This document shows, piece after piece, positions 1,294 to 25,763 of a stretch of DNA of 26,583 bases. The translations under genes were made by a program, and so were the position numbers. Source of the stretch: Amycolatopsis jejuensis (GTDB lineage Bacteria > Actinomycetota > Actinomycetes > Mycobacteriales > Pseudonocardiaceae); contig NZ_JNYZ01000058.1 in NCBI RefSeq assembly GCF_000717335.1, forward strand, positions 1 to 26,583, read 5' to 3'. Within the stretch, counting starts at the first letter, position 1. Every line of letters begins with the position of its first letter. The notes below the pieces were generated by a model. The model saw only the letters and a list, made by a program, of their open reading frames with translations, ran no database searches and was not told the DNA's origin.

Positions 1294-1299
1294 GGCCGC

Positions 1300-5301: not shown

Positions 5302-6300
5302 TCAGAAGGCCTCGTGGGGCAGCCTCCGCCGGCACCTCGCCGACACCCGGCGACCGAAGATGCGGAGGGGGTTTTTCATGAGGATCTGCTGTGTCGCCTC
5401 AGCTCCGAGCCGGGCCTTCATCAGCGGCACGAAGTCGGTGATCAGGGTGGCCGCGTTCCCCGAATAGGCCGGGTCCGGGAGGCGGGCCAGTGAGGCGTCG
5501 TTGGAGACGAGCACGCGATCGCCGTACCCGGCTTCGCACAGGGCCGACACCTGGTCGAGGAGCACCTTCTCCGGGTCGGCCAACGCATACGGCTCCGGCC
5601 GCTGTACCGACATTCCGTCGAACTGCAGGTTGACGCCCCACCGCAGTGCAGTCAGATGCTCTTCTCCGCTGGAGAATTCCCCGTGTCCCCAGACGATCTG
5701 GCGCGGGTCGAGGAGGTCGGTCGACACCAGGCGGAAGGCTTGCTCGAACGCGGCGAAGTCGAGGGCGTGCACGCACAGGGCCGCGCCGGTCATCGAGGCG
5801 GCCTGGGCTGCCGCTACGAGGACTCGCCGTTCGGCCGAGGTGGGGCCGCCGTCGAGGGCGGTGACTTTGATGAACGTCGCGGTCACCGGGGTGTTTTCGA
5901 TGCCGGACCGGAGCTCGTCGACGAACACTTTCGCCAGCTCGTCGGTGGTTGCCGTGCTCAGCGACGGGGGCAACGCGCCGGCGCCGACCCCGGTCGCGGC
6001 GGCGATCTTCACGCCGGACCGCTTCGAGACGTCCCGGAGGAACAGGATGTTCCGCCCCATCCCGATGGCCGTCCAGTCCACCAGCAGGGAAACACCCACG
6101 GCACGCAGCTTGCCGAGCTCGGCCACGACGTGCCGGCTGGTGGCTTCCCAGTCGACGTCGAGGTAACTGTCGTGTGCCGGGCCGTGGGCGTCCACGCACA
6201 CGTGCTCGTGTGCCAGCACGTACCCGACCTCGTCCGCGGCCACCGGGCCGGTCACAGTGTTGATCACCCAGTCCGAAGGGGCGAAAGCCGAAAGGTTCAT
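5302..6300 (-). CDS. Phosphotriesterase-family metal-dependent hydrolase
   Basis: This encodes a 332-residue protein. All six binuclear-metal ligands of the phosphotriesterase/PHP family are in place: His31 and His33 (HEH), Lys145 (FIKV, the carbamylated lysine), His178 (CVHA), His206 (WGHGEF) and Asp268 (SNDA). Family members hydrolyse lactones, organophosphates or carboxylate esters, and a small-acid lactone or ester is the likeliest substrate here (inference). The ATG at 6300 overlaps the stop of the decarboxylase beta gene as ATGA and has a GGAGA ribosome-binding site 8 bases upstream. It is the last gene of the long minus-strand run. No signal peptide is seen, so it is cytoplasmic. The C-terminal tail is Arg-rich. 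Confidence 0.82.
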   Translation of the reverse strand: MNLSAFAPSDWVINTVTGPVAADEVGYVLAHEHVCVDAHGPAHDSYLDVDWEATSRHVVAELGKLRAVGVSLLVDWTAIGMGRNILFLRDVSKRSGVKIAAATGVGAGALPPSLSTATTDELAKVFVDELRSGIENTPVTATFIKVTALDGGPTSAERRVLVAAAQAASMTGAALCVHALDFAAFEQAFRLVSTDLLDPRQIVWGHGEFSSGEEHLTALRWGVNLQFDGMSVQRPEPYALADPEKVLLDQVSALCEAGYGDRVLVSNDASLARLPDPAYSGNAATLITDFVPLMKARLGAEATQQILMKNPLRIFGRRVSARCRRRLPHEAF

Positions 6301-6911
6301 CTGACGTCTCCAGGCTGGGTTGCGCGCTCGAGCATGTTCCGCTTGAAATTGATGGCGACCTCGGCGATGTCCCGGTCGGGGCGGGGCCGCCGGCCGTGGT
6401 GGCCGGAATCGTCGTGCACATCGAGTTTCGCCACGATGACGTGCGGGCCCGGAGTCCGGAGCGCGTGCTGCAGCCCGGTCTCGAACGCGGCGAGCGTGTC
6501 GGCCTCGCTGACCTGGCCGGGGGGCAACCCGCAGGCCAGCGCGACGGACCGCAGCGAAGTCCCGCATCCGGTCACCGTAGCTCGCCTGCCGTCCGCCGTG
6601 CTCGCGTACACCTGATCGTCCATGACCAGCAGGATGAGATTCGGCGGCTGATATCGGCCGGTGGTGGCCAGGATCGTCATTCCGGCGACCAACGACCCGT
6701 CCCCTTCGAAAGCGATCACCTTTTCCTCCGGGCGCGCGATGGCCAGCCCGAATGCCATCGCCGCCGAATAGCCCAGCTCCATGTTGTAGAGCGTCGCCGG
6801 TTCGTATCCGCACACGTAGAGTGCCCCGGAGAGCGCGCCGGGGCCGGCGATCACCGGAGCGCGGCCACGCAGCCGGTGCACGACGCGCGCTGCCTCGTAT
6901 CGATCAATCAC
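6297..6911 (-). CDS. ThDP-dependent decarboxylase, beta (PP-domain) subunit
   Basis: This is a 204-residue protein made only of the diphosphate-binding (PP) half of a thiamine-diphosphate enzyme. GDGS at 70-73 starts the cofactor motif. At its end, where sulfopyruvate decarboxylase ComE-type proteins have DN followed by VYGST, this protein has Asp98-Asp99 and then QVYAST. Such half-proteins pair with a PYR-domain partner, here the gene just upstream. The known relatives decarboxylate sulfopyruvate or phosphonopyruvate, so a 3-substituted pyruvate or other 2-oxoacid is expected. GTG 6911 overlaps the alpha stop as GTGA. The C-terminal tail (HHGRRPRPDRD) suggests a His/Arg-rich loop. Confidence 0.8.
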   Translation of the reverse strand: MIDRYEAARVVHRLRGRAPVIAGPGALSGALYVCGYEPATLYNMELGYSAAMAFGLAIARPEEKVIAFEGDGSLVAGMTILATTGRYQPPNLILLVMDDQVYASTADGRRATVTGCGTSLRSVALACGLPPGQVSEADTLAAFETGLQHALRTPGPHVIVAKLDVHDDSGHHGRRPRPDRDIAEVAINFKRNMLERATQPGDVR

Positions 6912-7426
6912 GGGGCCACCATCCGATCGAGCAGGTTCGCGGGAACGATGAAGCCCACTGCCGTTTTCTGCGATGCGCACGTCTTGAGTGCCTCGTGGAC
7001 GGCCCACCTGGGATCGGTGCCCGGCAGCAGGGTGTGATGCGGGATGTCGAGGCCGCGAAACACGCCTTCGGCGGCCAGCGCCGACGCCTGGTGGTAGTCG
7101 TGTTCCTCGCCGAAGACGCGGCTGTGCCCGGCAAGAACGAGCGCGGGAATGCGGCACACCCGCATCCGGGCCAGGATCAGGCCGCAGTAGCCGACCCCCG
7201 AACCCTCCATGGCGACAACGGGAGTCTTCCCGCCCAGCCACGCGCCGGCGGCGATCGCCATGCCTTCGTCCTCCCGCGCGCAGATGACGCTTTCCACCGC
7301 CGGGTTCTTGGCCAGCAGTTCGATCACCGGCGTCAGCACCCGCTCGGGAAGGGACACGCAGAAGTCGACACCGCCGTCCATCAGGCCGGCGTAGACCTCG
7401 TCCGCAATGGATTCACCGTCAGCCAT
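6908..7426 (-). CDS. ThDP-dependent decarboxylase, alpha (PYR-domain) subunit
   Basis: This is a 172-residue PYR-domain protein of the ComD/phosphonopyruvate-decarboxylase type. The segment CAREDEGMAIAAG (residues 49-61) carries the conserved acidic residues that activate the thiazolium, followed by a GSGVGYCG loop. Together with the adjacent PP-domain protein it should form a heteromeric cytoplasmic decarboxylase with the active site at the subunit interface. It starts 7 bases after the stop of the solute-binding protein gene and ends in a GTGA overlap with beta. The ribosome-binding site is weak. The exact 2-oxoacid cannot be inferred; an acetolactate-synthase-like role is unlikely because the central domain is absent. 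Confidence 0.78.
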   Translation of the reverse strand: MADGESIADEVYAGLMDGGVDFCVSLPERVLTPVIELLAKNPAVESVICAREDEGMAIAAGAWLGGKTPVVAMEGSGVGYCGLILARMRVCRIPALVLAGHSRVFGEEHDYHQASALAAEGVFRGLDIPHHTLLPGTDPRWAVHEALKTCASQKTAVGFIVPANLLDRMVAP

Positions 7427-7433
7427 TGCGCAC

Positions 7434-8375: not shown

Positions 8376-8426
8376 GGAAAACTCCGATGAGTGAGCGGAA
8401 GATACGGGCCAGGAAAGGAATTGCGG

Positions 8427-8843
8427 TCACGCGGGCGGAACAAGGGCCGGGCGGCTGCCGAGGAATGCCGTGGCCTCGATCTCGACGAGCAGCTGCGGGT
8501 CGGCCAGCGCGCTGACCGCCACCGACGTGTTGACCGGGCGGATCCGGGCGAACACCTCTCGGTGCGCGCGGGCGAATTCCGGAAAGCCGTCCGGCATCGT
8601 CAGGTACGCCCGAGTCTGGATGACCTCGGCCAGCGAACCACCCGCTTCCTGCAGCGAGGCAGCGATCTTGCCGAGCACGAACTTGGTTTGCGCATACATG
8701 TCCCCGGGCGCCACGACGGTGCCGCCGTCGGTGGCGGTCGTGCCGGCGACCATGATCAACGACCCGCACCGGACGACCCTGGCGTACCCGGCCAGTTCCT
8801 CGTTCGGCCAGGTGGAGAAATAGCGCTGCGCAGTTTCGGGCAT
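8427..8843 (-). CDS. RidA/YjgF-family protein lacking the catalytic Arg
   Basis: This is a 138-residue protein of the RidA (YjgF/YER057c/UK114) fold, normally a trimer with active sites between subunits. Canonical RidA uses an Arg in the RSCVEV segment to hydrolyse reactive enamines/imines. In the aligned segment here (RPVNTSVAVSAL) that position is Asn105. It therefore belongs with the Arg-lacking Rid subgroups rather than true RidA. Its N-terminus (RYFSTWPNEELAGYARVV) is longer than in E. coli RidA. The location between an amidohydrolase and a binding-protein gene suggests a pathway-specific role, such as a hydrolase or tautomerase acting on an N-containing intermediate (inference). AGGA precedes ATG 8843. 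Confidence 0.85.
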   Translation of the reverse strand: MPETAQRYFSTWPNEELAGYARVVRCGSLIMVAGTTATDGGTVVAPGDMYAQTKFVLGKIAASLQEAGGSLAEVIQTRAYLTMPDGFPEFARAHREVFARIRPVNTSVAVSALADPQLLVEIEATAFLGSRPALVPPA

Positions 8844-8881
8844 CGCACCGAATCCTTTCCGTAGCCGCCACCCAGGGGCGG

Positions 8882-10255
8882 TCAGAACACCGGCCACTTC
8901 GGCTTCAAGTCGATTCCCGACCTCGTCATCACGGTTTCGCGGGCCCGCCGGCTCGCCTGCCACAGTTCGGCCGGGTCGAAGCCGGTGGCAACCCGGTCTT
9001 CGACGAGTACCCGGCCGTCGACGACAACGGTGCGCACGCTGGAGGAATCGGCCGCATAAACGAGATTCGCCACGGGATTGAAGTACGGATCCGGCTGCCA
9101 GGCCGGACCCGTCAGGTCGAGCGTGACCAGGTCGGCCCGTTTGCCAACCTCGAGGGATCCCACGCGATCGTCGATCCGGAGTACCCGGGCGCCGTCGATG
9201 GTGGCCATTTCCAGCGCCCGGTAGCTGCCCGCCGCCAAGGGATCGGCCGTGACGTCCTTGTGCGCGGCCGCGGCCAGGTACATCACGCGGATCAGGTCGA
9301 GGAACCGGCTGACGGCCGCCGCGTCCGTGCCGAGACCCACGACGACCCCGGCGTCGAACATCTTCGGGAAGCCGCCGGACCCGACCACCCCCATCGCGCC
9401 CACCATGCTGGCGGAAGGGCAGTGCACGACCCGAGTCCCGGTCGCGGCCAGCAGCTCGGCTTCGGCCTCGGTGACCGCCCCCATGTGCACCAGGGCCAGG
9501 TGCGGCCCGAGGATCCCGAGCCGGTCCAGCCGCTCGATGTCCGACGGCGGGCGCTGCGGCTCGTTGCCCAGGATGAGATGCATCTGCACGGAGCCGCCGC
9601 AGCGTTGCGCGGCCGCGCACATGCCGATGCGTAGCTCGTCCGAGGTGGTTTCCATGTCCCGCAAGGAAAAACCGGCGCTGATCCGGCCATCCGCCCGGCC
9701 GTCCCATGCGTCGTGGAACGCGGCACTCGCGGCCAGCACCTCCTCGGTCGATTCCAGCCGGGCACTCGCCGTGGGCATCGACGCGGTGCTCCGGTCCTGC
9801 GACGAGCGGGCGACGACGCCCCGGATGCCGATTTCCTCAGCCGCCGCACACACCGCTTCGGGGTGCGTGCTGCCCGGATCGGCGAAACAGGTCGTTCCGT
9901 TGAGCAGCATCGCGGCGAAGTTGCCCATCGCCGCGGCCTGCGTGTCCGCCGCGGAGATGGCTTGTTCCAGCGGCCGGATGCGGTTTGCGATGCGCCACCG
10001 CACCGGGACGTCGTCGGAGAATCCCTGGGAGAGGAAGTGCACCGGGTGGTTGTGCGCGTCGATGAGCCCCGGGATCACCAGCCGGTCCGTGCAATCCACC
10101 CTGCGCGCGGCCGGGTACTGCCCGCGCAGGTCGGCGGACTTGCCCACCGCGACGATGGCGCCGTCCGTGACCGCCACCGCACCGTCGCGGATCATCCGCC
10201 GTTCCGGGTCCATCGTGACGACATAACCGCCGTCGAAGAGCAGATCCGCGGTCAT
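8882..10255 (-). CDS. TRZ/ATZ-type amidohydrolase (aminohydrolase superfamily)
   Basis: This is a 457-residue cytoplasmic metal-dependent hydrolase. The usual metal ligands are visible: His68 and His70 (DAHNHP), His226 (QMHLIL), His257 (VHMGAV) and Asp311 (LGTDAAA), spaced much as in AtzA/guanine deaminase-type enzymes. HCPSAS also matches the family. An oddity is that the Glu normally three residues after the third His (HxxE) is Leu229 here. Family members deaminate or dechlorinate heterocycles (triazines, guanine, cytosine, S-adenosylhomocysteine). In this operon, deamination or C-N hydrolysis of a ring intermediate is the natural guess. ATG 10255 overlaps the hyuB-like stop as ATGA. Confidence 0.83.
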   Translation of the reverse strand: MTADLLFDGGYVVTMDPERRMIRDGAVAVTDGAIVAVGKSADLRGQYPAARRVDCTDRLVIPGLIDAHNHPVHFLSQGFSDDVPVRWRIANRIRPLEQAISAADTQAAAMGNFAAMLLNGTTCFADPGSTHPEAVCAAAEEIGIRGVVARSSQDRSTASMPTASARLESTEEVLAASAAFHDAWDGRADGRISAGFSLRDMETTSDELRIGMCAAAQRCGGSVQMHLILGNEPQRPPSDIERLDRLGILGPHLALVHMGAVTEAEAELLAATGTRVVHCPSASMVGAMGVVGSGGFPKMFDAGVVVGLGTDAAAVSRFLDLIRVMYLAAAAHKDVTADPLAAGSYRALEMATIDGARVLRIDDRVGSLEVGKRADLVTLDLTGPAWQPDPYFNPVANLVYAADSSSVRTVVVDGRVLVEDRVATGFDPAELWQASRRARETVMTRSGIDLKPKWPVF

Positions 10256-12255
10256 GACGCGACCTCGTCCGCCCGGCGCGGGAGCACGGCCCGCGCAGCC
10301 GCCCGGTCACCGCCGGTGGCGCGGAAGATCTCGTAGGCGCGGACCAAGTAGTAATGCCGCAGTTCCGGCCGGACCCGTTCGTGCAGTTCGGCCAGCAGCT
10401 CGTCGTGGAACTCCGGCGGGAACTCCCGCTCGAAAGCGAGCCGTTCGCTGCCCACCGCGAACTCCCCGGGAGCCGGCGCGGTGCGGGACCTCAGCTCGCG
10501 TCGTTTGCGTGCGGTCCCTTCGTAATCGATCTCGTGGCCGTCGATCAGCACGCCGTAGACCTGTTCCGCGTGGCCGGCGTCGATGTACTCGTTGAGCACG
10601 TCGGCCAGCACCGCCTCGGGGGCGCGCTGCAGCGGCTCGCCGAACCCGCCGCCGCCCGCACTGATCATCCGGACGGTTTCCCCCGGCTGCAGGCGCAGCA
10701 CGTCGATCTTGCCGAGGTGCCGTTCCCGGCCGGTGCCTTCGTCGACGATGATCCGGCTCAGGCTGCCCGGTGCTCCGCCCCTTCGCCCCCACGGCCGGAA
10801 GACGTTGCGTTCCCAGCCACGCGCGGTCAGCACGCTGTCCGGGACGATGGCTTCGACGCACATGTCGCGGCCCAGCCCGCCCCGGAACTCCCCGGCCGCG
10901 GGTGCCTCGTCGGCGAGCCGGTAGTGCCGCAGGACCACCGGCAGCTCGGTCTCGATGACCTCCGCGGGGATGTTGCGGGTGAACCCCGCCAGGATCCCGA
11001 CCCCGTCGACCGCGTCCTTCCCGGGCCGGGCACCCGAACCGCCCCCGAGCGGCGAGACCACGTTGACGATGCGCTCGCCCGTTTCCTCGTCGAAGACCGA
11101 CATCGCCATCACCCCGCCGATCCCGGCTTCGGCGGCCGGGATGACCCCGGCGACGGCCTGCGCCCCGCCGGTTCCCTCGCACGCCTGCGACAGGGCCCCC
11201 AGCAGGGTTTCGAGCGCCCGCAGGCCGGTGGCGAACCGGACCCCGACCGGGGCGGGCGCCACCGGCGTCAGGATCGTTCCTTCCGGGATCACCACCCGGA
11301 TCGGCCGCCACAGCCCCTTGTTCAGCGGGGCATGCGGGCTGAGGGACAGGAAGAAGCCGGCGAGGCCGCCGGTGAGGAAATGGTGGTTCCGGCCGAACGT
11401 CGCGAGGTTCATCGCCGCCCGGACCTGCGGGTCGGTGCCCGTGTAGTCGATGGTCATCTCGTCGCCCCGGACCGTCGCCGCCACCGAGATGCGGGCGGGC
11501 GGCATGTCGATCATGTCCAGTTCGAGGTAGTCGTGGAACCGGTAGCTGCCGTCCGGGATGCGCGTGATGATCTCCCGGCTGACCGTCTCCGCGTAGTCGA
11601 GGACCTGGTCCCGCGCGGCTTCGACGACGTCGATGCCATACCGGTCGATCGTCTCGGCCATCCGGTCCTCGGCGACGTTCATCGCGGCGTTGAGCGCGTT
11701 GAGGTCACCGCGGTTGGGCAGCGGAATACGCGAGTTCGCCAGGAAGAGGTCCATGACATCCGTGTTGAGCTCGCCCGCCCGGTAGAGCTTCAGCGGCGGG
11801 ATCCGCAGGCCTTCCTGGTGGATGTCGGTGGCGGTCGGGCTGATGCTGCCGGGGGCGATCCCGCCGACGTCCGAGGAATGGATGAAGGTCCAGACGAAAC
11901 AGACGATCCGCCCGTCGTGGAAGATCGGTTTGAGCAGCTGGATGTCCGGCAGGTGGCTGGCGAGGCCGCCGCTGCGGAGGTACGGGTCGTTCGAGATGAC
12001 GACGTCGCCGGGGACGAGATCGTCGAACACGCGCACGGCCTGCTCGAACGGTGCCGCCACCATGAACGACACGCCGATGTCCTTGGAGTATGCGAACATC
12101 TCGCCGTCGCAGGTGACCAGGCCCATGCCGAAGTCCCACGCTTCCTTCACGAAGGGCGTGAACGAGGAGCGCCAGATGTTGCGCCCCATTTCGGTGACGA
12201 TTCCGGTGAACCGGTTGTTGAGGATTTCCAGGGTCACCTGGCTCACGGGGGTCAT
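10252..12255 (-). CDS. HyuB-type subunit, ATP-dependent hydantoinase/oxoprolinase family
   Basis: This encodes a 667-residue protein of the HyuB/oxoprolinase-B family. It has the early LEILNNRF segment, GDVVISNDPY near residue 83, HLPD shortly after, and the terminal SAGGGGFGEP motif. HyuB partners with HyuA to hydrolyse or carboxylate substrates at the expense of ATP: N-methylhydantoin, 5-oxoproline, caprolactam, or acetone-type ketones. No third small subunit of the acetone/acetophenone carboxylase kind is next to it, which favours cyclic-amide hydrolysis. The C-terminal about 100 residues beyond the GGGG motif are Glu/Arg-rich and helical, somewhat longer than the minimal family. It overlaps both neighbours by 4 bases (ATGA), so A, B and the amidohydrolase are coupled. 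Confidence 0.88.
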   Translation of the reverse strand: MTPVSQVTLEILNNRFTGIVTEMGRNIWRSSFTPFVKEAWDFGMGLVTCDGEMFAYSKDIGVSFMVAAPFEQAVRVFDDLVPGDVVISNDPYLRSGGLASHLPDIQLLKPIFHDGRIVCFVWTFIHSSDVGGIAPGSISPTATDIHQEGLRIPPLKLYRAGELNTDVMDLFLANSRIPLPNRGDLNALNAAMNVAEDRMAETIDRYGIDVVEAARDQVLDYAETVSREIITRIPDGSYRFHDYLELDMIDMPPARISVAATVRGDEMTIDYTGTDPQVRAAMNLATFGRNHHFLTGGLAGFFLSLSPHAPLNKGLWRPIRVVIPEGTILTPVAPAPVGVRFATGLRALETLLGALSQACEGTGGAQAVAGVIPAAEAGIGGVMAMSVFDEETGERIVNVVSPLGGGSGARPGKDAVDGVGILAGFTRNIPAEVIETELPVVLRHYRLADEAPAAGEFRGGLGRDMCVEAIVPDSVLTARGWERNVFRPWGRRGGAPGSLSRIIVDEGTGRERHLGKIDVLRLQPGETVRMISAGGGGFGEPLQRAPEAVLADVLNEYIDAGHAEQVYGVLIDGHEIDYEGTARKRRELRSRTAPAPGEFAVGSERLAFEREFPPEFHDELLAELHERVRPELRHYYLVRAYEIFRATGGDRAAARAVLPRRADEVAS

Positions 12256-16211: not shown

Positions 16212-17150
16212 CTACTTGCCCCGGTCGGCAGGGGCGAGATCGTTGATCGAAATGGTGCTGACCGCGTCGTTTTCCACGCCGTACTTGTGCAGCACCTTGA
16301 CGTACTCCCCGTTGTCCACGAGCTTCTGCAGGGCCTTTTGCAATGCTTTCAGCAGGTCCTGGTTGCTCTTGAGCACGCCGTAGGCGTCGGTGAAATACAC
16401 CGTGCCGCCGAGACCCTGGAGGTCGGGCACGGACACGAACGCCGAGCCGTTGTCCGCCGTCTTGGCGATGTAGGCGGTCAGGGCTTCCGATTGCACGAAC
16501 GCGTCCGCGTCCCCGCTCTTCACCGCGAGCAGCGGGCTGCTGTTGTCGGAGTAGAGCCGCGTCTTGATTTCGGGCTTGCCTTTCTGCGCGCATTCTTTCT
16601 GCCGGTCGGCCACGATCGACTGCGGCGGCGTCGAACCTTGCACGAGGGCCACGGTGTGGCCGCACAGATCGGAGACGCCCTTCACGTGGTACGGATTCTT
16701 CTTGGGCACGAGGACCCCGAACGGCACCTTGAAGAAGACGGCGAAGTCGGCGATGGCCCGGCGGTCGGGCGACGGGAGTACGGTGCCGGTCGCGTCCGCT
16801 TTGCCTGCCTGCAGGGACGGCATGATCGCGTCGAACTTCACGTTGGTGAATTCGACCTTGAGCCCGGCCAGCTCACCGACCTTGCGATAGAGGTCGATGT
16901 CGATTCCGCCGAGCTGGTCGCCGTCGAGGGTCGCCATCGGCGGCGCGGGAGCGGTGAGGACCACCCGTAACGTGCCGCTGTCCCGGATCTTGGCCGGAAA
17001 GGCCGCTCGCACCTCCTTGTCGACGTTCGGCCCGGGAGTGCCGTCGCTGCCCGGCGACGTTCCGCCGCAGGCGGACAGCAGGCCGGTCAGCAAGAGCGCG
17101 GTGGTCGCCACACTGGCCCGGACGAGGGTGCGAGTTGTCGTGATACTCAT
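16212..17150 (-). CDS. Extracellular solute-binding lipoprotein (family 3), copy 1 in the run
   Basis: This is a 312-residue protein with a lipoprotein signal (LLLTGLLSACGG, lipobox LSAC). The mature protein is a family-3 binding protein, with GIDIDLYRKVG and VPFGVLVPKKNPYHV. DLCGHT plus KEC suggests a disulfide at the same place as in its paralogue at 7434-8375. It delivers solute to the permease encoded next. ATG 17150 has a GAGG ribosome-binding site 6 bases upstream, lying inside the 3' end of the molybdenum-enzyme gene; TTG 17156 is unlikely. It starts 2 bases after that gene's stop, which ties uptake to the oxidoreductase. Confidence 0.88.
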   Translation of the reverse strand: MSITTTRTLVRASVATTALLLTGLLSACGGTSPGSDGTPGPNVDKEVRAAFPAKIRDSGTLRVVLTAPAPPMATLDGDQLGGIDIDLYRKVGELAGLKVEFTNVKFDAIMPSLQAGKADATGTVLPSPDRRAIADFAVFFKVPFGVLVPKKNPYHVKGVSDLCGHTVALVQGSTPPQSIVADRQKECAQKGKPEIKTRLYSDNSSPLLAVKSGDADAFVQSEALTAYIAKTADNGSAFVSVPDLQGLGGTVYFTDAYGVLKSNQDLLKALQKALQKLVDNGEYVKVLHKYGVENDAVSTISINDLAPADRGK

Positions 17151-17152
17151 CT

Positions 17153-20100: not shown

Positions 20101-20563
20101 CGCCGAATGTGCGGTCGAACGAAACCGCCACCCCGCGCGAATCCCGCGACCGCAAGGCCGGGTCGGCATCGAGCGCTTCGTCGAACGAGCGCAGCCGCGG
20201 CAGCGGGGCATAGCGGACCCGGATGCGAGCCAGTGCCGCACGGGCCTGTTCCTCGGATTCGGCGGCCACCGCAGCGATCTCGTGCCCCACGAAACGCACC
20301 GTGTCGCGCGCGAGGGCCGGCCGGTCGCCGATGCCGTAGTCGAGGTAGCGCCGGTCCGGCAGGTCGGCCGCGGTGATGACCGCCTGTACGCCGGGCATGC
20401 GCTCGGCCGCGTGCACGTCGAGCTGGGTGATTCTGGCGTGCTCGTGCGGACTGCGCAGCACGGCAGCGGCGAGCATGCCGGGCAGCCGGAGGTCACCCGC
20501 GTACCGGGCGCTGCCGTCGGTACGCGCCTGCCATTCGGCGTGCCGGACGTGAGGCATTCTCAT
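17153..20563 (-). CDS. Molybdenum hydroxylase: fused molybdopterin + FAD subunit
   Basis: This is an 1136-residue fusion. Residues about 1-730 form the molybdopterin subunit of the xanthine dehydrogenase/CO dehydrogenase family, with a hammerhead domain, GGDFGSR, GGAFRGAGGPQ and GAKGLAE, whose Glu703 is the expected catalytic Glu. A linker with a WWISAMRWAYPHGL segment leads to a CoxM-type FAD domain (about 805-1110, PLGGGTDLLVA). Inside the FAD domain, Cys899, 904, 913, 921, 923 and 942 cluster within 44 residues. 4-Hydroxybenzoyl-CoA reductase has a four-Cys [4Fe-4S] insertion at the corresponding place, and the 8-residue gap (913-921) matches it. The enzyme is probably cytoplasmic. ATG 20563 overlaps the [2Fe-2S] gene stop as ATGA. 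Its substrate is likely an aromatic or heterocyclic compound. Confidence 0.85.
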   Translation of the reverse strand: MRMPHVRHAEWQARTDGSARYAGDLRLPGMLAAAVLRSPHEHARITQLDVHAAERMPGVQAVITAADLPDRRYLDYGIGDRPALARDTVRFVGHEIAAVAAESEEQARAALARIRVRYAPLPRLRSFDEALDADPALRSRDSRGVAVSFDRTFGEAPASPGPVTVSGRYRFGSQAHACMEPHTTVARWDAECLHIWTPTQGTRTVRRELAHLLDLGEDRIRLHRIAAGGDFGSRVRPGDVEVLAAALAIKTGRPVRLALTRADEFAHTKHRHDFVVDLATTATRDGRLISREADVKVEAGGYAQAAGNELNFCSLVLASQYRLDAARVSGAAYYTSRRPGGAFRGAGGPQAVFAIESQLDELAAQLGQDPVELRIRNANRPGDRTIAGWEIDSARMIECLQTARDRIGWETKRALGGSGRGVGIAAAIHVSGALGTPYATYSEARVELGTDGSVRVRTGAGDPGTGQSTVAGILVAGQLGLDAADVEVVYQDTAQTPYDPGAGASKGTYMTGNAALGAGRAAAEYLRELAAGKFATPAASVRLDGGMVRAGADAISIGDLVTAAPDTVDGVLGFSYRHTVDLPLADDPSGIGNLSPAYSFAAHAVEVEVDRATGRVRVLKVVAVHDSGTIVNPTGAAGQVVGGVAMALGAALGEELTYAEGKLANGSYTEYALPRAVDVPDITPVFLESADGTGPLGAKGLAEIALSPIPAAVANAVAHAVGARVRELPITPDKVLSALGIPERPAGLRWDPHRWWISAMRWAYPHGLHALLHRYGTRLARPQRPPEPIRLHQPPTVPAATATLQEQPRSRPLGGGTDLLVARAQGIRSESLLVDLTRLPELTRLTHPPGEDLVIGAAVTLAQLAEFARRHEISALAETIGTIATAQLRATATVAGNLCQEKRCGFFRNGFACYKRGGGTCPCYAVLGDHRFYHAALGAHRCQATTPSDLATTLSAMDATVHLATPQGARRMPIGELYRGPGETVLGHADVITHLVVPAAALRRTTTFEKLQLYDGGFALVSACVSVQATAGAVTECRAVLGGIAPTPYRASATEQALLGQRATDELIERAAGAWTAEAHPLPGTAWKPVAASALLARCTRRSLQEAQAGTGVPDLPPENEISVPGLVRNHNQQRG

Positions 20564-21066
20564 CCGCACTCCTCGCCCGGTCCGGCCATCCGGATGCCCT
20601 GCACGATCGCGGAGTATCCGGTACAGCGGCAGATGTTTCCGGCGAGCTGGTGCCGGAGCCCGTGGTCGTCGGCGGGCACCTCGCCGGCGCGCAGCAGGGC
20701 CGCGGCGTGCACGAGCTGCCCCGACGTGCAGAACCCGCACTGGAAGGCCCCGGCGTCGGCAAACGCTTCCCGCAGCCGCGCCGTTTCCCCGGCAAGTCCT
20801 TCGATCGTCTCCACCGGGCCGCGGACGCGAGCGGCGAGCGTGATGCAGGCGAGTACCGGGGTGCCGTCCACGAGCACCGTGCACGCGCCGCATTCCCCGT
20901 TGCCACAGGCCAGTTTCGTGCCGGTCAGGCCGAGCCGGTCGCGCAGGAGCTCGAGCAGGACCGCGCCGGGAGCATGCCGGAGCAGGTGCCGGGTCCCGTT
21001 GACCTCGAGCTCGGTGTCGGTGGTGGCGGTGCGGTCCCCGGCCCGCCGCCGGCTCAGGCGCCGCAT
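20560..21066 (-). CDS. [2Fe-2S] subunit of molybdenum hydroxylase
   Basis: This is a 168-residue protein of the XdhC/CoxS/HcrC type. The plant-ferredoxin-like cluster is bound by Cys54, Cys59, Cys62 (CGNGECGAC) and Cys74. The second cluster is bound by Cys110, Cys113 (CGFC) and Cys146, Cys148 (CRC). It carries electrons between the molybdenum centre and the FAD domain of the next gene's product. The first 16 residues are a basic extension; ATG 21066 lies within the 3' end of the GTPase gene (13-base overlap). All eight cluster ligands are intact. Confidence 0.92.
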   Translation of the reverse strand: MRRLSRRRAGDRTATTDTELEVNGTRHLLRHAPGAVLLELLRDRLGLTGTKLACGNGECGACTVLVDGTPVLACITLAARVRGPVETIEGLAGETARLREAFADAGAFQCGFCTSGQLVHAAALLRAGEVPADDHGLRHQLAGNICRCTGYSAIVQGIRMAGPGEECG

Positions 21067-21980
21067 GCCGCGAACTCCCGTTCCAGTGCGGCTTCGTCGA
21101 GCCCGGCGCCGATCAGCACGAGGACCGACCGGCCTGGCTGCGGCTCGGCGCCGGCCGGCAGGTCGTCGAGGTCAACCGAACCGGACACCAGGTGCACGGC
21201 CTTCGCGGCGGCGCTTCCGGCGAGGTGCACGACTCCCTTGGCGCGGATCACGGACGAGGGCAGGCCGGCGAGCCAGCCGCGCAGCCGGCCCGCGTCGAGC
21301 TCGCGTTCGGTGCCGACGGTGACGCTGGCGAACCGATGCTCGCCGGGTCCGTGGGTGCTGGGCGATCGAACGCCGTCGGCCGGGGCGCGCCGCTCGTCGA
21401 ACACCGCTGCCGCCGGGACTTCGCAGCGGACTGCGGTCAGCTGGGTGGCCGCGGCGTTGACACGGCGCAGGCCTTGCCGGATCAGTTCCAGCACTTCGCC
21501 GCCGACCAGGTCGGCCTTGTTGATGATCAGCAGATCGGCATGGGTGAGCTGGTGGTACGCGGCTTCGGCGTGTTCCAGGTTCGCGTCGAAGTTGGCGGCG
21601 TCGACGCACGTCACGGTGCCGGTGAAGGTGACCCGGCCGGAAAGCGGCGGGCTGACCAGCGATTCGATCACCGGCCCCGGGTCGACCAGCCCGCTGCCCT
21701 CGACGAGGATGTGGTCGAATCCGGGCCCGGTGGTCAGCAGCGTGTCCACCGCCCGGATGAGGTCACCGCGGCTCGCGCAGCACACGCACCCATTGGCCAG
21801 TTCCAGCACACTGCCGGTGCGATGGGTGATGAGCGAGGCGTCGATGCCGAGTTCGCCGAACTCGTTCACGATCACCGCGAGGCGGCCCGGCGGCCGCGCC
21901 GTGAGCAGATGGTTGACCAGGGTTGTCTTGCCACTGCCCAGAAAACCGGTCACCAGCGTGAGTTTCGTCGTGGTCGCCAT
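21054..21980 (-). CDS. CobW/COG0523-family GTPase (metallochaperone type)
   Basis: This is a 308-residue G3E GTPase. Walker A is GFLGSGKT (12-19), the metal-binding GCxCC motif is GCVCC (64-68), and the guanine-specificity motif NKAD sits near residue 150. A C-terminal CobW_C-like domain includes SVTVGTERELD and a VIRAKGVVHL strand. Relatives (ZigA, ZNG1, YeiR, CobW, NHase activators) deliver Zn, Co or Fe to client enzymes. No His-rich metal-storage loop is visible. Its position between the M20 hydrolase and the molybdenum-enzyme genes suggests it supplies metal to a hydrolase of this pathway, or helps mature the oxidoreductase (inference). ATG 21980 is 2 bases after the M20 stop. Confidence 0.88.
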   Translation of the reverse strand: MATTTKLTLVTGFLGSGKTTLVNHLLTARPPGRLAVIVNEFGELGIDASLITHRTGSVLELANGCVCCASRGDLIRAVDTLLTTGPGFDHILVEGSGLVDPGPVIESLVSPPLSGRVTFTGTVTCVDAANFDANLEHAEAAYHQLTHADLLIINKADLVGGEVLELIRQGLRRVNAAATQLTAVRCEVPAAAVFDERRAPADGVRSPSTHGPGEHRFASVTVGTERELDAGRLRGWLAGLPSSVIRAKGVVHLAGSAAAKAVHLVSGSVDLDDLPAGAEPQPGRSVLVLIGAGLDEAALEREFAACGA

Positions 21981-21982
21981 CG

Positions 21983-23170
21983 CTACGCACCTGCTCCCGA
22001 CATCGAGGCACCGGCCAGCAGCCGGGACCGCACGGACGGCCGGTCCGCGAGATCGACGATGGTGGCGGCCAGCAGCGACGCACCGGCGAGCATCGCGTCG
22101 TCCGCCGCCGGGGTGGCACACGCCCTGGTGAAGTCCGGCTGATGGTTGACCACCGGCCAGGTACCGAGACCGACGAACGGGTGCAGCATCGGTATCGCTT
22201 GGGAGACGTTGCCCGCGTCGGTGGAGGCCAGGAAACCGGCGACCTGCTCCTCGGGATCGAACTCGCGCCCCGCGGTCACCGCGTTGGCCCGGTACAGCTC
22301 GGCCAGCTCGGGATCGGCCCGGAACTCCGCGTACGGCCGCTCACCGCCGCGCAGTTCCACCTGACATCCGGCGGCCAGTGCACCACCACGGAAACAATCC
22401 GTGACGCGGGTCCGGACGTCGGACAGCGCGGCCAAGGTCGGCGCGCGCAGAACGTACTCGGCCCGGGCCGACGCGGGGATGATGTTCGGCACTTCGCCGG
22501 CAGCGGTGGTGATGCCGCTGATCCGGATGCCGGGGTCGATGTGCTGACGCAGCAAGCCGATCGCGATCTGCCCGATGGCGAGCCCGTCGGCGGCGTTGCG
22601 CCCGCGCTGCGGTGCCGCGGAGGCGTGCGCGGCCTGACCGGTCACCGCCACGTCCATGGTGGACGCTGCGATCATGGCCGGGGAGACGGCTTCGAACGGG
22701 GTCGGGTGGATCATCAGCGCGGCGTGCACGCCGTCGAAGCCGCCCCGCTCCAGCATCAGGATCTTTCCGCCGCGGGACAGCACTTCCTCCGCGGGGGTGC
22801 CCAGTACGGTGATCGTGAGGTCCAGCTCGTCGGCAACCGGGCCGAGCGCCCGCGCCGCGGCGTAGGCGGCGGCCGCGATCATGTTGTGCCCGCACGCGTG
22901 TCCGATGCCGGGGAGGGCGTCGTACTCGGCGACCAGCGCGACGTTGAGGCTGCCGCTGCCGAGCTGCGCCCGGAAAGCCGTCGGCAGACCACAGATCCCG
23001 GCCTCGACCGAGTAGCCCTCGGCAGCCAGCGCCTCGGCCAGCCAGCGGCTGGCGTCGGCCTCCTCGTAGCCGATCTCGGGCCGGGCGTGCAGGGCATGGC
23101 TCAGCCTGACCGCGTCGCTGCTCCCGTGGCGTACCCGGCCGGCCGCGCGATCCTTCTGGTCAGCGCTCAT
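21983..23170 (-). CDS. M20-family amidohydrolase (AbgB/aminoacylase type)
   Basis: This is a 395-residue zinc hydrolase of the M20D group. EYDALPGIGHACGHN (82-96) holds metal ligands His91 and His95 with the conserved Cys93. TPAEE near residue 132 carries the general base Glu and a metal ligand. The AHASAAP segment marks the dimerisation-domain His, and VNHQPDF near the C-terminus fits the p-aminobenzoyl-glutamate-hydrolase/AbgB subgroup. Such enzymes remove an N-acyl group or split an amide; here one may release an amino acid from an N-acyl or N-carbamoyl intermediate (inference). ATG 23170 overlaps the upstream amidohydrolase by 11 bases. Confidence 0.88.
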   Translation of the reverse strand: MSADQKDRAAGRVRHGSSDAVRLSHALHARPEIGYEEADASRWLAEALAAEGYSVEAGICGLPTAFRAQLGSGSLNVALVAEYDALPGIGHACGHNMIAAAAYAAARALGPVADELDLTITVLGTPAEEVLSRGGKILMLERGGFDGVHAALMIHPTPFEAVSPAMIAASTMDVAVTGQAAHASAAPQRGRNAADGLAIGQIAIGLLRQHIDPGIRISGITTAAGEVPNIIPASARAEYVLRAPTLAALSDVRTRVTDCFRGGALAAGCQVELRGGERPYAEFRADPELAELYRANAVTAGREFDPEEQVAGFLASTDAGNVSQAIPMLHPFVGLGTWPVVNHQPDFTRACATPAADDAMLAGASLLAATIVDLADRPSVRSRLLAGASMSGAGA

Positions 23171-24848
23171 GGACGAGCTCCCCGCCGACGTAGGTCTGCA
23201 GCACCTTCAGCTCCGCGACCTCCTGGTCGGAACAGGTGAGGATGTCCCGGTCCAGCACGGCGAAGTCGGCGAGCTTGCCGGTTTCGAGCGAGCCGCGGAC
23301 GTTCTCCTGCCAGCAGGCGTACGCGTTGTTGATGGTGTACATCCGGAGCATCTGCTCACGGGTGATTTCCTGGCCCGGTGCCAGCACCCCGGCGAGCGTG
23401 TCCCCGGTGAGTGCGGCGTACTGGCTCAGGAAAGGACGGTCCGGGTCGTAGACCACGGCCGGGTTGTCCGAGCCGCCGGTCACCATGAGGCCGGCGTCGA
23501 ACCAGTCCTTGAGCGGCATTCCCCAGTCCCGCACGGTGCGCTTCCACGGGTCGTGCTCCGACATCTTGGCGATGCGCACCTGCTCCATGATCTCGTTCAT
23601 CCGCATGGACCGCGCCGACGCGTAGTAGGCCAGCAACGGATTGGCGGCGAGGGTGACGCCGAGTTCACGCGCCCGTTCGTAGTGATCGCGTTGCTGCAGG
23701 CCGAAACCGTGCTCGAAACTGAGCCGGCGGCCGTCGATCGGCCTGGTCTTGGCCGCTTCCTCCAGCGCCGAGATCACGATCTCGGCGGAGTCGCCCGCGC
23801 CACCGGTGTTGATGTGGATCGCCATGTTCCAGTCCCGGCGGTTGTACTCGGTGATCAGGAACCGCAGCTTGTCGGCGGAGTAGGCCCACCAGCCGTCGTT
23901 GACCACGACGAGCTTGATGCCGTTGAGCCGCAGCATGTCGTCGCCGAGGTGCTGCCGCGGCCCGAAGTAGGAGTCGATGGCGGTGAGGATCTCGTCGTTC
24001 GGCAAGTACCGGGCAGGCAGCCCGAGAATGAGGTCGGTGCGGATCTTCAGCAGGCCCCGCCGGCGTGCCTCGACGAACGAGTCGAGCTCGTCGACCGACG
24101 TGCCCATGTCGCGCACGCCCACCACTCCGCACGAGTGGTAAATGCGTTGCTGCGCCATCAGTGCCTCGATCTGCATGTCCTGGTCGAAATGCAGGAAGTC
24201 CCACTTCTTGATCGGCTGCCCGGCCGCCTTCCACCAGGCTTTGCGGGCCAGGTCGCCCGCGCCCGCGATGAGGTGCCCGGTGGGCTCACCGGCCCCGTCG
24301 CGCACGATCCAGCCTTCCGGCTCTGCCGGATGCGGGGTGTCGCGGGTGATGCCGGCGAGCCGCAGGGCATAGCTGTTGCAGATGACGTTCTTCCCGGACT
24401 GGAAGATGTACACCGGATGATCCGGCGCCACCTTGTCCAGGTCGTGCCTGGTGGGAAAGCGACCGTCGGCGAGCGCGCCGCGGTACATGCACGAGGTGCC
24501 GATCCATTCGCCCGCGGGCGTGACGTCGACCCGCGCCTTGATCTCCCGCAGGATCTCGTCGATCGACTGCAGCGTGGCAATGTTGACCTTCGCGGCGCCC
24601 CCGAGTGCATCGAGGCCGGCCAGCACGAAATGCACGTGGTTGTCCATCTGTCCGGGCACGACACAGCGGCCCTGCAGGTCGACCGTCTTCGTCCGGCGGC
24701 CGGCCAGTGCCCCGATCTCGTCGCTCGTCCCGACCGCAACGATCTTGCTGTCGAACACGGCGATCGCTTCGGCGACGGAGAAGGCACCGTCGACGGTGAC
24801 GATCCGGCCATTGGTGAGAACGAGGTCAGGAGCAAACTCGACAGGCAC
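23160..24848 (-). CDS. YtcJ-type (amidohydrolase family 3) metal-dependent hydrolase
   Basis: This is a 562-residue enzyme. It begins with a beta-sandwich segment (LVLTNGRIVTVDG), and His71/His73 (NHVHF) open the barrel metal site. Further candidates are His in AIHINTGG, His in LSFEHGFG and Asp in TGGSDNPAV. The beta-sandwich closes at the C-terminus (GKLADFAVLDRD). YtcJ-like proteins hydrolyse amides or N-formyl/N-acyl bonds of varied small molecules. GTG 24848 is chosen because a perfect GGAGG lies 7 bases upstream; the frame is open to 24896. It follows the IclR gene by 66 bases with no clear promoter between. Confidence 0.87.
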   Translation of the reverse strand: MPVEFAPDLVLTNGRIVTVDGAFSVAEAIAVFDSKIVAVGTSDEIGALAGRRTKTVDLQGRCVVPGQMDNHVHFVLAGLDALGGAAKVNIATLQSIDEILREIKARVDVTPAGEWIGTSCMYRGALADGRFPTRHDLDKVAPDHPVYIFQSGKNVICNSYALRLAGITRDTPHPAEPEGWIVRDGAGEPTGHLIAGAGDLARKAWWKAAGQPIKKWDFLHFDQDMQIEALMAQQRIYHSCGVVGVRDMGTSVDELDSFVEARRRGLLKIRTDLILGLPARYLPNDEILTAIDSYFGPRQHLGDDMLRLNGIKLVVVNDGWWAYSADKLRFLITEYNRRDWNMAIHINTGGAGDSAEIVISALEEAAKTRPIDGRRLSFEHGFGLQQRDHYERARELGVTLAANPLLAYYASARSMRMNEIMEQVRIAKMSEHDPWKRTVRDWGMPLKDWFDAGLMVTGGSDNPAVVYDPDRPFLSQYAALTGDTLAGVLAPGQEITREQMLRMYTINNAYACWQENVRGSLETGKLADFAVLDRDILTCSDQEVAELKVLQTYVGGELVHER

Positions 24849-24914
24849 TGCATTGCCTCCATGGTTGAGGGTTTTGCCGGCAGGCGGCGGGAGCACACCG
24901 GCCGTTTCCGGCTG

Positions 24915-25763
24915 TCAACCGAGCAGTTCCGCACTCGCCGGCCCGGTCAGGTGGCGGTTGCCGGCACCAGCAGGCAAGAGCTGGGAGATCCGGGCCGCCG
25001 TCTCGACCAGCGCGGGTGCGACGGTCTGGGTCATCTCGGCCATCGAGACCAGTGGAGTCGGCATGACGACGTTGACTGCGGCGACCGGATAGCCGTCGGG
25101 GCTCATCAGCGGGGCAGCCACCGAACGCACGCCGAGCGTGGTCTCCTGGTCCATGACGGCGAACCCGCGTTCGCGCGTCTGTGCCAGCATCTCCTGCAGC
25201 TCGCCGGGTGACGCCGCCGCGTACTCGGTTGTTGCCTGGAACCGGATCTCGCCGATGACCTCGGCGCGTTCCTGCTCCGGCAGGTAGGCGAGCATCGCCT
25301 TGCCGAGCGAGGACAGCTGGATCGGCAGCCGGTCTCCGATGTGCACGTTGACCCCGAGCCGGTAAGTGGCCCCACGCAGGCAGTCGATGAACATCACTTC
25401 CGCACGGTGGCGCACCGCCAGGTTCACCGACTGCCCGAACTGCTCGATCAGCGCGACGAGGTGCGGACGGGCGAGCTGGCGAAGATCGAGGCTCTGCAAC
25501 GCAGCGTAACCCAGCGTCAGCACGCATACTCCGGGCCGGTACCGGCGCGTCTGCGGGTCCTGCTCCAGGTAGCCGAGGTCGTACAGGGTCGACACCAGCC
25601 GCTGGGTCCGCCGCTTGTCCATCTCCAGCATCCGTGCCAGCTCACCCACGCCGAGCTCCGGGCGGTCGGCCGTGAAGGCGGCCAGCACCCGCAAACCGGC
25701 GGCCAGCGAAGCCACGAAGTCGCCTCGGGAGGGTAATGCACTATTTGCATCAGCGGTGCGCAT
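24915..25763 (-). CDS. IclR-family transcriptional regulator
   Basis: This is a 282-residue regulator. The winged helix-turn-helix covers residues about 16-80, starting with FVASLAAGLRVLAAF, a PcaR/PobR-like opening. The C-terminal effector domain includes RLPIQLSSLGKAMLAYL and a MSPDGYPVAAVNVV strand. Members of this family commonly control catabolic operons by binding a pathway metabolite. It is the first gene of the 17-gene run and likely controls it and itself. ATG 25763 lies 7 bases after a TAACAT -10 box with no Shine-Dalgarno sequence, so translation is probably leaderless. ATG 25772 and an ATG at 25826 are in frame, but the first overlaps the -10 box. Confidence 0.87.
   Translation of the reverse strand: MRTADANSALPSRGDFVASLAAGLRVLAAFTADRPELGVGELARMLEMDKRRTQRLVSTLYDLGYLEQDPQTRRYRPGVCVLTLGYAALQSLDLRQLARPHLVALIEQFGQSVNLAVRHRAEVMFIDCLRGATYRLGVNVHIGDRLPIQLSSLGKAMLAYLPEQERAEVIGEIRFQATTEYAAASPGELQEMLAQTRERGFAVMDQETTLGVRSVAAPLMSPDGYPVAAVNVVMPTPLVSMAEMTQTVAPALVETAARISQLLPAGAGNRHLTGPASAELLG

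What the first reader, a model, noticed from the sequence alone, without database searches (positions are those of the whole stretch)
5302..25763. A 17-gene collinear catabolic cassette with no known pathway match
Seen: 17 minus-strand genes, most overlapping by 4-13 bases, with a largest gap of about 100 bases. Established: IclR regulators, Mo hydroxylases, HyuAB, TRZ/ATZ and M20 hydrolases, Rid proteins and ThDP decarboxylases each serve catabolism of N-containing compounds. Inference: the set describes one route. An amphoteric or amino-acid-like N-heterocycle is imported, hydroxylated or dehydrogenated by the Mo enzyme, deaminated, and ring-opened with ATP by HyuAB. It is then hydrolysed at the amide by M20 or YtcJ enzymes and finally decarboxylated as a 2-oxoacid. 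I know of no described operon combining HyuAB, a Mo hydroxylase and a split ThDP decarboxylase.
Basis: partly seen in the sequence, partly recalled or inferred. Interest (0 to 1): 0.78.

Follow-up and report, generated by a model that had tools for sequence, protein, structure and literature searches.

The report
Composite operon for N-ring breakdown
A bacterium carries a tightly packed run of 17 genes that looks like a kit for importing and dismantling an unidentified nitrogen-containing ring compound; the individual tools are familiar, but the combination looks rare and may have been put together from separate modules.

Summary
The 17-gene minus-strand run at 5302-25763 is real. All 17 products match Pfam families above cut-off; 8 of 16 junctions overlap by 4-13 bp, and the widest gap is 101 bp. 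Most active-site motifs tested are intact. Two departures matter. The "TRZ/ATZ" protein and six relatives lack the deaminase HxxE glutamate, so the proposed deamination is doubtful. Both solute-binding proteins keep the carboxylate arginine but have Ser for the alpha-amino aspartate, so the imported compound is probably a carboxylate without a free alpha-amino group. Best reading: an IclR-controlled composite catabolic operon for a carboxylated N-heterocycle, using Mo hydroxylation, ATP-dependent lactam opening by HyuAB, hydrolytic trimming, Rid and ThDP decarboxylation. Step order and substrate are inferred. No second cassette was found in the genomes searched. In the distant relatives opened, Mo and HyuAB modules lie apart. 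Contig-length matching hints that Mo-FAD and ThDP genes travel together; a HyuB-ThDP match is near chance. "No known pathway match" is too strong: reductive uric-acid clusters use an analogous toolset, without orthology. New variant of a known kind.

The parts
24915..25763 (-). IclR-family regulator (PcaR/PcaU/PobR-like, below that model's cut-off)
   Evidence: PF01614 121.5 bits, PF09339 43.1; TIGR02431 194 of 284.75
25763..25796 (.). imperfect palindrome at the IclR start; candidate operator only
   Evidence: 19-nt arms, 74% complementary, outer 7 bases of each arm (TGCACTG/CAGTGCA) fully complementary
23160..24848 (-). YtcJ-type Amidohydro_3 metal hydrolase
   Evidence: PF07969 218 bits; HxH motif; the name YtcJ is recalled
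21983..23170 (-). M20-family amidohydrolase (Xaa-Arg dipeptidase/HmrA-like)
   Evidence: PF01546 48.7 bits; TIGR01891 194.6 of 153.75; nearest solved 3ram, 7yh4
21054..21980 (-). CobW/COG0523 GTPase, putative metallochaperone
   Evidence: PF02492 170 bits; Walker A and CVCC motif
20560..21066 (-). 2x[2Fe-2S] small subunit of the Mo hydroxylase
   Evidence: PF01799, PF00111; both Cys motifs
17153..20563 (-). fused Mo large subunit plus FAD subunit, 1136 aa, with PaoB/HcrB-type extra cysteines
   Evidence: PF01315, PF02738, PF20256, PF00941, PF03450; best solved 1rm6_A, HcrA; Cys pattern
16212..17150 (-). solute-binding lipoprotein 1 (SBP_bac_3)
   Evidence: PF00497 82 bits; carboxylate Arg kept, alpha-amino Asp is Ser
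15277..16182 (-). polar-amino-acid-type ABC permease
   Evidence: PF00528 85 bits; TIGR01726 65.8 of 42.2
14435..15280 (-). GlnQ-type ABC ATPase
   Evidence: PF00005 119 bits
12252..14333 (-). HyuA, ATP-binding subunit of an ATP-dependent cyclic amidase
   Evidence: PF01968, PF05378, PF19278; DVGGTFTD, DMGGT, GSDPGP
10252..12255 (-). HyuB, metal-binding subunit of the cyclic amidase
   Evidence: PF02538 476 bits; D41, H101, D104, H126 conserved
8882..10255 (-). TRZ/ATZ-like Amidohydro_1 hydrolase lacking the deaminase Glu
   Evidence: PF01979 149 bits; metal ligands kept, HxxE absent
8427..8843 (-). Rid-family protein (enamine/imine hydrolase-like)
   Evidence: PF01042 78 bits
7434..8375 (-). 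solute-binding lipoprotein 2, 52% identical to SBP1
   Evidence: PF00497 95 bits; identity 159/306
6908..7426 (-). ThDP enzyme, PYR-domain subunit (ComD/phosphonopyruvate-decarboxylase-like)
   Evidence: PF02776 31 bits; TIGR03845 71 of 147.95; REDEG motif with the catalytic Glu invariant in 19 of 19 aligned
6297..6911 (-). ThDP enzyme, PP-domain subunit (ComE-like)
   Evidence: PF02775 52 bits; GDG motif
5302..6300 (-). phosphotriesterase-like (PTE/lactonase fold) metal hydrolase
   Evidence: PF02126 145 bits; HEH, Lys, His, Asp metal-motif candidates

Best explanation
A composite, IclR-regulated catabolic operon for a carboxylated nitrogen heterocycle (or similar cyclic N-compound) that has no free alpha-amino group. 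Shown: the genes, their order, the intact HyuAB ATP and metal motifs, a Mo/2Fe-2S/FAD enzyme with extra cysteines, and the altered SBP and TRZ active sites. Inferred mechanism: (1) the acid is imported by a one-permease ABC system served by two duplicated binding lipoproteins. (2) The fused Mo/FAD enzyme with its 2Fe-2S subunit hydroxylates a carbon next to nitrogen to give a lactam. (3) HyuAB phosphorylates and hydrolyses the lactam with ATP. (4) The Amidohydro_1, Amidohydro_3, M20 and PTE-like metal hydrolases cut the remaining amide, N-acyl or lactone bonds, with COG0523 supplying metal. (5) Rid hydrolyses an enamine/imine to a 2-oxoacid. (6) The two-subunit ThDP enzyme decarboxylates it to an aldehyde. 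The operon looks like a merger of a TRZ-HyuAB module, also seen in Variovorax, and a Mo-ThDP module.
For: 17 of 17 genes with family matches, overlaps and no strand change. HyuA/HyuB motifs of the caprolactamase paper present (PMC8453981, passages). Large subunit nearest HcrA: NCBIfam HcrA 494, XdhA 438, PaoC 349, CODH 318 bits; solved chains HcrA 308, CoxL 254, quinoline oxidoreductase 240, PaoC 238. SBP Arg kept, Asp to Ser in both. IclR nearest the aromatic-acid regulators PcaR/PcaU/PobR, below cut-off (that these answer to aromatic acids is recalled). IclR-TRZ-HyuA-HyuB-M20 run in Variovorax RA8: TRZ 43%, HyuA 48%, HyuB 51% identical. Exact contig-length matches pair Mo-FAD with ThDP-N on two contigs (24762, 30859), against about 0.125 expected by chance.
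Against: No expression data and no substrate evidence. No second cassette found. No Mo hydroxylase detected in the stretches around 24 distant HyuA(B) relatives, and no HyuAB around five fused-Mo relatives. Only 1 of 10 genomes with HyuA relatives has any ThDP-N match, at 27% identity. The RA8 M20 is not a close relative of the window's: no hit at 1e-4. The HxxE loss leaves the TRZ step unknown.
Confidence: 0.4

Rival explanations
1. Same operon, but the Mo enzyme works last: the ThDP enzyme makes an aldehyde and the Mo enzyme oxidises it to the acid, as PaoABC-type aldehyde oxidoreductases do. Ring opening then needs only HyuAB and the hydrolases.
For: FAD domain closest to the medium subunit of an aldehyde oxidase (5y6q_B 118 bits, HcrB 97, PaoB 85), with the PaoB cysteine pattern; E. 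coli PaoB (89 bits) over XdhB (76); Mo-FAD and ThDP-N share two contig lengths while Mo-FAD and HyuB share none; no aldehyde dehydrogenase family among the 17 genes.
Against: Large subunit scores higher with HcrA (494 bits) and XdhA (438) than with PaoC (349) models, and with XdhA (289) over PaoC (238) by BLAST.
Confidence: 0.25
2. Two or more independent catabolic modules happen to sit in one transcription unit: a TRZ-HyuAB module and a Mo/CobW(/ThDP) module, with no shared substrate.
For: Modules apart in the distant relatives opened; no shared contig between Mo-FAD and HyuB lists; coding GC is higher in M20-CobW-MoS-Mo (0.71-0.74) than in the SBP1, permease and ATPase genes (0.66); two SBPs.
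Against: One strand and no gap over 101 bp. The modules are interleaved: M20 and YtcJ precede the Mo genes, and TRZ-HyuAB lie between the Mo genes and the ThDP genes.
Confidence: 0.24
3. An aerobic version of the reductive uric-acid (XdhD-SsnA-HyuA-UacY-YgeY) pathway, that is, a purine or ureide route.
For: Same Pfam set: Mo hydroxylase, Amidohydro_1, a hydantoinase function, Amidohydro_3, M20 (PMC12507026, passages).
Against: No window protein hits E. coli YgeY, HyuA, YgfK, YgeX or YgeW at E<=1e-3; SsnA only 42 bits, less than GuaD at 110; SsnA keeps HAAE, the window protein does not. HyuAB belongs to PF01968/PF02538, not PF01979. The transporter is of polar-amino-acid ABC type, not a purine permease.
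Confidence: 0.06

Closest known systems
Reductive uric-acid degradation cluster (E. coli xdhD-ssnA-hyuA-ygeY; C. difficile with uacY)
   Same: Mo hydroxylase, Amidohydro_1, a hydantoinase, M20 and (C. difficile) Amidohydro_3 work in sequence on an N-heterocycle (PMC12507026, passages)
   Different: No orthology to the E. coli proteins tested; window has ATP-dependent HyuAB, ThDP decarboxylase-like pair, Rid, PTE and ABC uptake; no counterpart of YgfK, YgeX or YgeW found
ATP-dependent lactam hydrolases: caprolactamase CapAB, N-methylhydantoinase, 5-oxoprolinase, IaaCE of Aromatoleum
   Same: HyuA ATP motifs and HyuB Asp-His-Asp-His metal site (PMC8453981, passages); nearest solved HyuA relatives are N-methylhydantoinase and 5-oxoprolinase
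   Different: CapA 471 and CapB 251 bits against cut-offs of 1000; substrate unknown
4-Hydroxybenzoyl-CoA reductase and PaoABC aldehyde oxidoreductase
   Same: Xanthine-oxidase-family Mo enzyme with extra cysteines in the FAD part
   Different: Large and FAD subunits fused; below all equivalog cut-offs
Sulfopyruvate/phosphonopyruvate decarboxylase (two-subunit ThDP)
   Same: Split PYR and PP subunits, catalytic Glu, GDG motif
   Different: 71 of 148 and 74 of 221.5 bits; 19 relatives aligned of 56 found share MEGSG where 9iz3_A has MQNSG
IclR-TRZ-HyuA-HyuB-M20 run of Variovorax sp. RA8 plasmid 2
   Same: Regulator (27%), TRZ (43%), HyuA (48%), HyuB (51%) together
   Different: Tripartite tricarboxylate SBP; M20 not a close relative; no Mo, ThDP, Rid, PTE or YtcJ match in the 30-kb stretch

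Membership tests
ATP-dependent HyuAB (hydantoinase/oxoprolinase) | HyuA phosphate and adenosine motifs | tested here: met
   DVGGTFTD, DMGGT, GSDPGP; motifs from PMC8453981 (passages)
ATP-dependent HyuAB (hydantoinase/oxoprolinase) | HyuB Asp-His-Asp-His metal tetrad | tested here: met
   D41, H101, D104, H126, invariant in 4 of 4 aligned sequences
Caprolactamase | equivalog score | tested here: not met
   471 of 1000 (CapA), 251 of 1000 (CapB)
TRZ/ATZ-type deaminase | mononuclear metal ligands HxH, His, His, Asp | tested here: met
TRZ/ATZ-type deaminase | acid/base Glu in HxxE | tested here: not met
   absent in 7 of 7 (window plus six relatives), present in 2 of 2 E. coli references SsnA and GuaD; the role of the Glu is recalled; RA8 has a Glu two residues further on
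Xanthine-oxidase-family Mo hydroxylase | Mo domains, catalytic Glu, two 2Fe-2S motifs, FAD domain | tested here: met
4-hydroxybenzoyl-CoA reductase | equivalog scores of the three subunits | tested here: not met
   494 of 995, 147 of 405, 137 of 258
4Fe-4S-bearing FAD subunit (PaoB/HcrB type) | four extra cysteines | tested here: met
   read by eye from the alignments: aligned with PaoB in all four, with HcrB in three of four; which cysteines bind the cluster is recalled
Sulfopyruvate decarboxylase | equivalog scores ComD/ComE | tested here: not met
   71 of 148; 74 of 221.5
Sulfopyruvate decarboxylase | catalytic Glu and GDG...N motif of ThDP enzymes | tested here: inconclusive
   Glu and GDG present; the residues after the spacer are DD, where 9iz3_B has DN, so Mg ligation is inferred
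Polar amino-acid binding protein (HisJ/GlnH type) | Arg for the alpha-carboxylate | tested here: met
   Arg in SBP1 and SBP2 at HisJ R77; role recalled
Polar amino-acid binding protein (HisJ/GlnH type) | Asp for the alpha-amino group | tested here: not met
   Ser in both at HisJ D161, Asp in 4 of 4 E. coli references; role recalled
Reductive uric-acid cluster | orthologues of SsnA, HyuA, YgeY | tested here: not met
   42 bits for SsnA, no hit for HyuA or YgeY at E<=1e-3
Reductive uric-acid cluster | YgfK/UacX and YgeX | tested here: not met
   no YgfK or YgeX match among the window proteins; UacX (DHO_dh) family not among the Pfam hits of the 17 genes
Indoleacetate (iaa) cluster | CoA ligase, mutase and dehydrogenase genes iaaB, iaaGH, iaaF | tested here: not met
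   no such family among the Pfam hits of the 17 genes; gene list from the Introduction of PMC8360864
Single transcription unit | one transcript across all junctions | not testable with these tools
   needs RNA

The most novel reading that the evidence does not exclude
An undescribed aerobic pathway in which a fused, cysteine-enriched Mo hydroxylase makes a lactam from a carboxylated N-heterocycle, HyuAB opens it with ATP, and a distinct two-subunit ThDP decarboxylase subfamily (MEGSG type) removes the carboxyl carbon, with a TRZ-like enzyme that has abandoned the deaminase glutamate for another hydrolysis.
Probability: 0.25. Interest if true: 0.62.

Novelty: new variant of a known kind. Interest (0 to 1): 0.42.

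Why it matters
If it is one pathway, it would give a substrate and function to several orphan enzyme groups at once: the MEGSG-type split ThDP enzymes, the HxxE-less TRZ group, and this branch of ATP-dependent cyclic amidases. It would also show how actinomycetes build routes for N-heterocycles from modules. The altered binding-protein site narrows the first substrate screen to carboxylates without a free alpha-amino group.

Tried and rejected
Same gene order in other genomes: searched with the fused Mo-FAD protein (80 genus, 150 family, 246 class and 18 further genomes, overlapping sets), ThDP-N (390 family genomes), the Mo small subunit (386) and HyuB (246 phylum genomes; 230 of another family). 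No second cassette was found. One search had no positive control, so its empty result shows little. Strict cut-offs mean only fairly close relatives could appear; the genomes were a sample of a larger group. The window's own Mo-FAD protein did not appear among the 120 rows listed, although own proteins appear; I do not know why.

Fused Mo-FAD relatives (44-45% by tblastn) in G021, G221, G193, G120 and G300: not treated as cassette relatives. They share the Mo small subunit, and some have IclR, MFS or ABC-ATPase matches at 27-35%, but no HyuAB, ThDP, TRZ, M20 or YtcJ match at 1e-4. Embleya NBC_00896 and NBC_00888 hold HyuA (35%), HyuB (31%), TRZ (35%) and M20 (51-52%) on one strand within about 30 kb, but separated by other genes on both strands; treated as weak. 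Purine/uric-acid orthology: rejected. 4-HBCR, caprolactamase and sulfopyruvate decarboxylase as names: rejected by curated cut-offs. Viral contigs with HyuA: no relative. Near-identical plasmid DNA for window 1-24999: no record covers 80% of the query; the 10 rows listed of 238 hit only the ABC ATPase gene. Plasmid protein searches gave only relatives under 60% identity. No structure prediction was run; the residue questions were answered from alignments.

Contig-length test: first run with 80 of 119 HyuB rows (expected chance matches 0.05 for HyuB/ThDP-N), then with all 119 (expected 0.2). The full run weakens the HyuB/ThDP-N link, and I lowered the main confidence from 0.42 to 0.40 and raised the two-module rival from 0.22 to 0.24 for that reason.

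Literature on HyuAB with a Mo hydroxylase and a ThDP decarboxylase: 0 papers; 1 paper; listing only, did not look relevant; 0. Searches covered indoleacetate and uric acid. Only an open-licence library was searched, so this does not show that the cassette is unpublished.

Full report
OBSERVATION. The run is real. Seventeen minus-strand genes occupy 5302-25763. All 17 products match Pfam families above the curated cut-off. Of 16 junctions, 8 overlap (six by 4 bp, one by 11, one by 13) and 8 are gaps of 2-101 bp. Terminator-like and promoter-like hits in the scanned stretches are at chance level (sigma-70 consensus only). In transcription order: IclR, YtcJ-type Amidohydro_3, M20, CobW/COG0523, Mo-enzyme 2Fe-2S subunit, a fused Mo large + FAD subunit (1136 aa), SBP1, permease, ATPase, HyuA, HyuB, TRZ/ATZ-like Amidohydro_1, Rid, SBP2, ThDP PYR subunit, ThDP PP subunit, PTE-like hydrolase. 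The window lies in a 10.1-Mb genome of 136 contigs. Family and genus are unnamed to me. The best relative of the Mo-FAD protein that bears an organism name is from Pseudonocardia adelaidensis (71%), so an actinomycete of that kin is likely but not shown.

ENZYME TESTS. HyuA has the three ATP motifs and HyuB the Asp-His-Asp-His metal site described for ATP-dependent lactam hydrolases (motifs from PMC8453981, passages). Its scores are well below the caprolactamase cut-offs (471 and 251 of 1000), so the substrate is open. The nearest solved relative of HyuA is an N-methylhydantoinase (7hk5). The Mo large subunit has the GGxFG motif and the catalytic Glu. It scores highest with 4-hydroxybenzoyl-CoA reductase alpha and XdhA models, far below cut-off. 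Among solved chains HcrA is first (308 bits), then a CoxL (254), quinoline oxidoreductase (240) and PaoC (238). The FAD part carries cysteines that align by eye with all four of PaoB and three of four of HcrB (ligand roles recalled), so an extra [4Fe-4S] cluster is likely. The 120 relatives listed, of 2642 found, carry both Mo and FAD domains, so this fusion is not peculiar to the window. The ThDP pair resembles sulfopyruvate/phosphonopyruvate decarboxylase below cut-off. The PYR subunit has few relatives: 56 proteins at E<=1e-10 in a database of 5.8 billion sequences, after a word prefilter that passed 367 candidates. Nineteen of these were aligned and share REDEG and MEGSG.

First, the TRZ/ATZ-like protein keeps the metal ligands but lacks the Glu of the deaminase HxxE motif. 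The Glu is absent in the window protein and six relatives (one each from Variovorax RA8, Novosphingobium and Embleya, and three from two Streptomyces) and present in E. coli SsnA and GuaD. A deamination step is therefore not supported, though another residue could take the role. Second, SBP1 and SBP2 (52% identical) keep the Arg that binds the alpha-carboxylate in HisJ and GlnH, but have Ser where HisJ, ArgT, GlnH and TcyJ have the alpha-amino Asp (residue roles recalled). The ligand is more likely a carboxylate without a free alpha-amino group than an amino acid.

DISTRIBUTION. The cassette was not found elsewhere in what was searched. In 390 family genomes, ThDP-N matches at E<=1e-12 were the window's own and ten at 28-33% identity. 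In 386, the Mo small subunit at E<=1e-50 was the window's own only. HyuB at E<=1e-120 was in 2 of 246 phylum genomes: the window's own and one at 40% identity. Matches spanning both parts of the fused Mo-FAD protein at 45-48% identity occur in seven other genomes (G021, G221, G193, G120, G300, G477, G480). Five of these were opened (G221 starts near a contig edge) and none has HyuAB, ThDP, TRZ, M20 or YtcJ matches at E<=1e-4; some have IclR, MFS or ABC-ATPase matches. Conversely, 24 loci with HyuA/HyuB relatives show no Mo hydroxylase match in the stretch held: 18, mapped; three plasmids; G802; two Embleya. Of ten genomes behind such loci, one has a ThDP-N match, at 27% identity. These relatives are distant and several stretches are short, so this bears only weakly on close relatives.

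A conserved core does recur: Variovorax RA8 plasmid 2 has IclR, TRZ (43%), HyuA (48%), HyuB (51%) and an M20 in a row. The RA8 M20 is not a close relative of the window's. Matching exact contig lengths between the lists gives two Mo-FAD/ThDP-N pairs (24762 bp, 61% and 67% identical; 30859 bp, 51% and 48%), against 0.125 expected by chance. It gives one HyuB/ThDP-N pair (7345 bp) against 0.2 expected, and no Mo-FAD/HyuB pair against 0.325 expected. This is indirect, since only the longest contig of each cluster is given. It supports a Mo/ThDP link and says little about HyuAB.

MECHANISM. I favour one pathway with the order import, Mo hydroxylation next to nitrogen, ATP-dependent lactam opening by HyuAB, trimming by the Amidohydro_1, Amidohydro_3, M20 and PTE-like hydrolases, Rid, and ThDP decarboxylation. 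Gene presence and motifs are shown; order and substrate are inferred. The main rival places the Mo enzyme last, as an aldehyde oxidoreductase. It is favoured by the PaoB-like FAD part and the Mo/ThDP contig pairs, and disfavoured by the HcrA/XdhA-like large subunit. A third possibility is two unrelated modules in one transcription unit.

AGAINST WHAT IS KNOWN. The closest toolset I found is the reductive uric-acid pathway: Mo hydroxylase XdhD, SsnA (Amidohydro_1), hydantoinase HyuA, UacY (Amidohydro_3, C. difficile), YgeY (M20) (PMC12507026, passages; the gene neighbourhood also in PMC2276186, passages). It works by similar logic but is not the same family: no window protein is an orthologue of E. 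coli SsnA, HyuA or YgeY, and YgfK, YgeX and YgeW have no match. Predicted lactamases of indoleacetate metabolism are also HyuAB-type (PMC5214803, passages; IaaCE in PMC8453981, passages), but the CoA-ligase, mutase and dehydrogenase genes of that cluster (PMC8360864, Introduction) have no counterpart among the 17 genes. Whether a Mo enzyme acts in that route I only recall; the primary paper was not held.

VERDICT. A real, tightly packed composite catabolic operon, a new variant of a known kind. It is moderately interesting because of the untested ThDP subfamily, the HxxE-less TRZ group and the narrowed substrate class.

Noticed in passing
window 3045-4358 (+) and 4481-5110 (-): A ProP/2A0106-type MFS transporter gene and a TetR gene lie beside the cassette with their 3' ends facing; the TetR gene is 191 bp downstream of the PTE-like gene on the same strand.
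   Followed up: partly
window 1-2900: No Pfam match in two long ORFs tested (3-1193 - and 1285-1986 +); the + ORF 2485-3072 has a weak alpha/beta-hydrolase match (27.7 bits, cut-off 26.3) that starts at profile position 70, perhaps a remnant.
   Followed up: partly
window 25763-25796: Imperfect palindrome at the IclR start codon, with outer TGCACTG/CAGTGCA complementary; possible autoregulatory operator.
   Followed up: no
L032-L033 (G021), L046-L047 (G193), L048-L049 (G120): Fused Mo-FAD relatives sit in other apparent catabolic clusters with an M20-type hydrolase of a different group and, in G021, LigB-like and Rieske-like genes; read by eye from ORF translations.
   Followed up: no
L090 11843-18855 (Embleya sp. 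NBC_00896): HyuAB relatives next to genes that look by eye like a two-subunit 2-oxoacid:ferredoxin oxidoreductase and a ferredoxin, another HyuAB plus ThDP-enzyme pairing.
   Followed up: no
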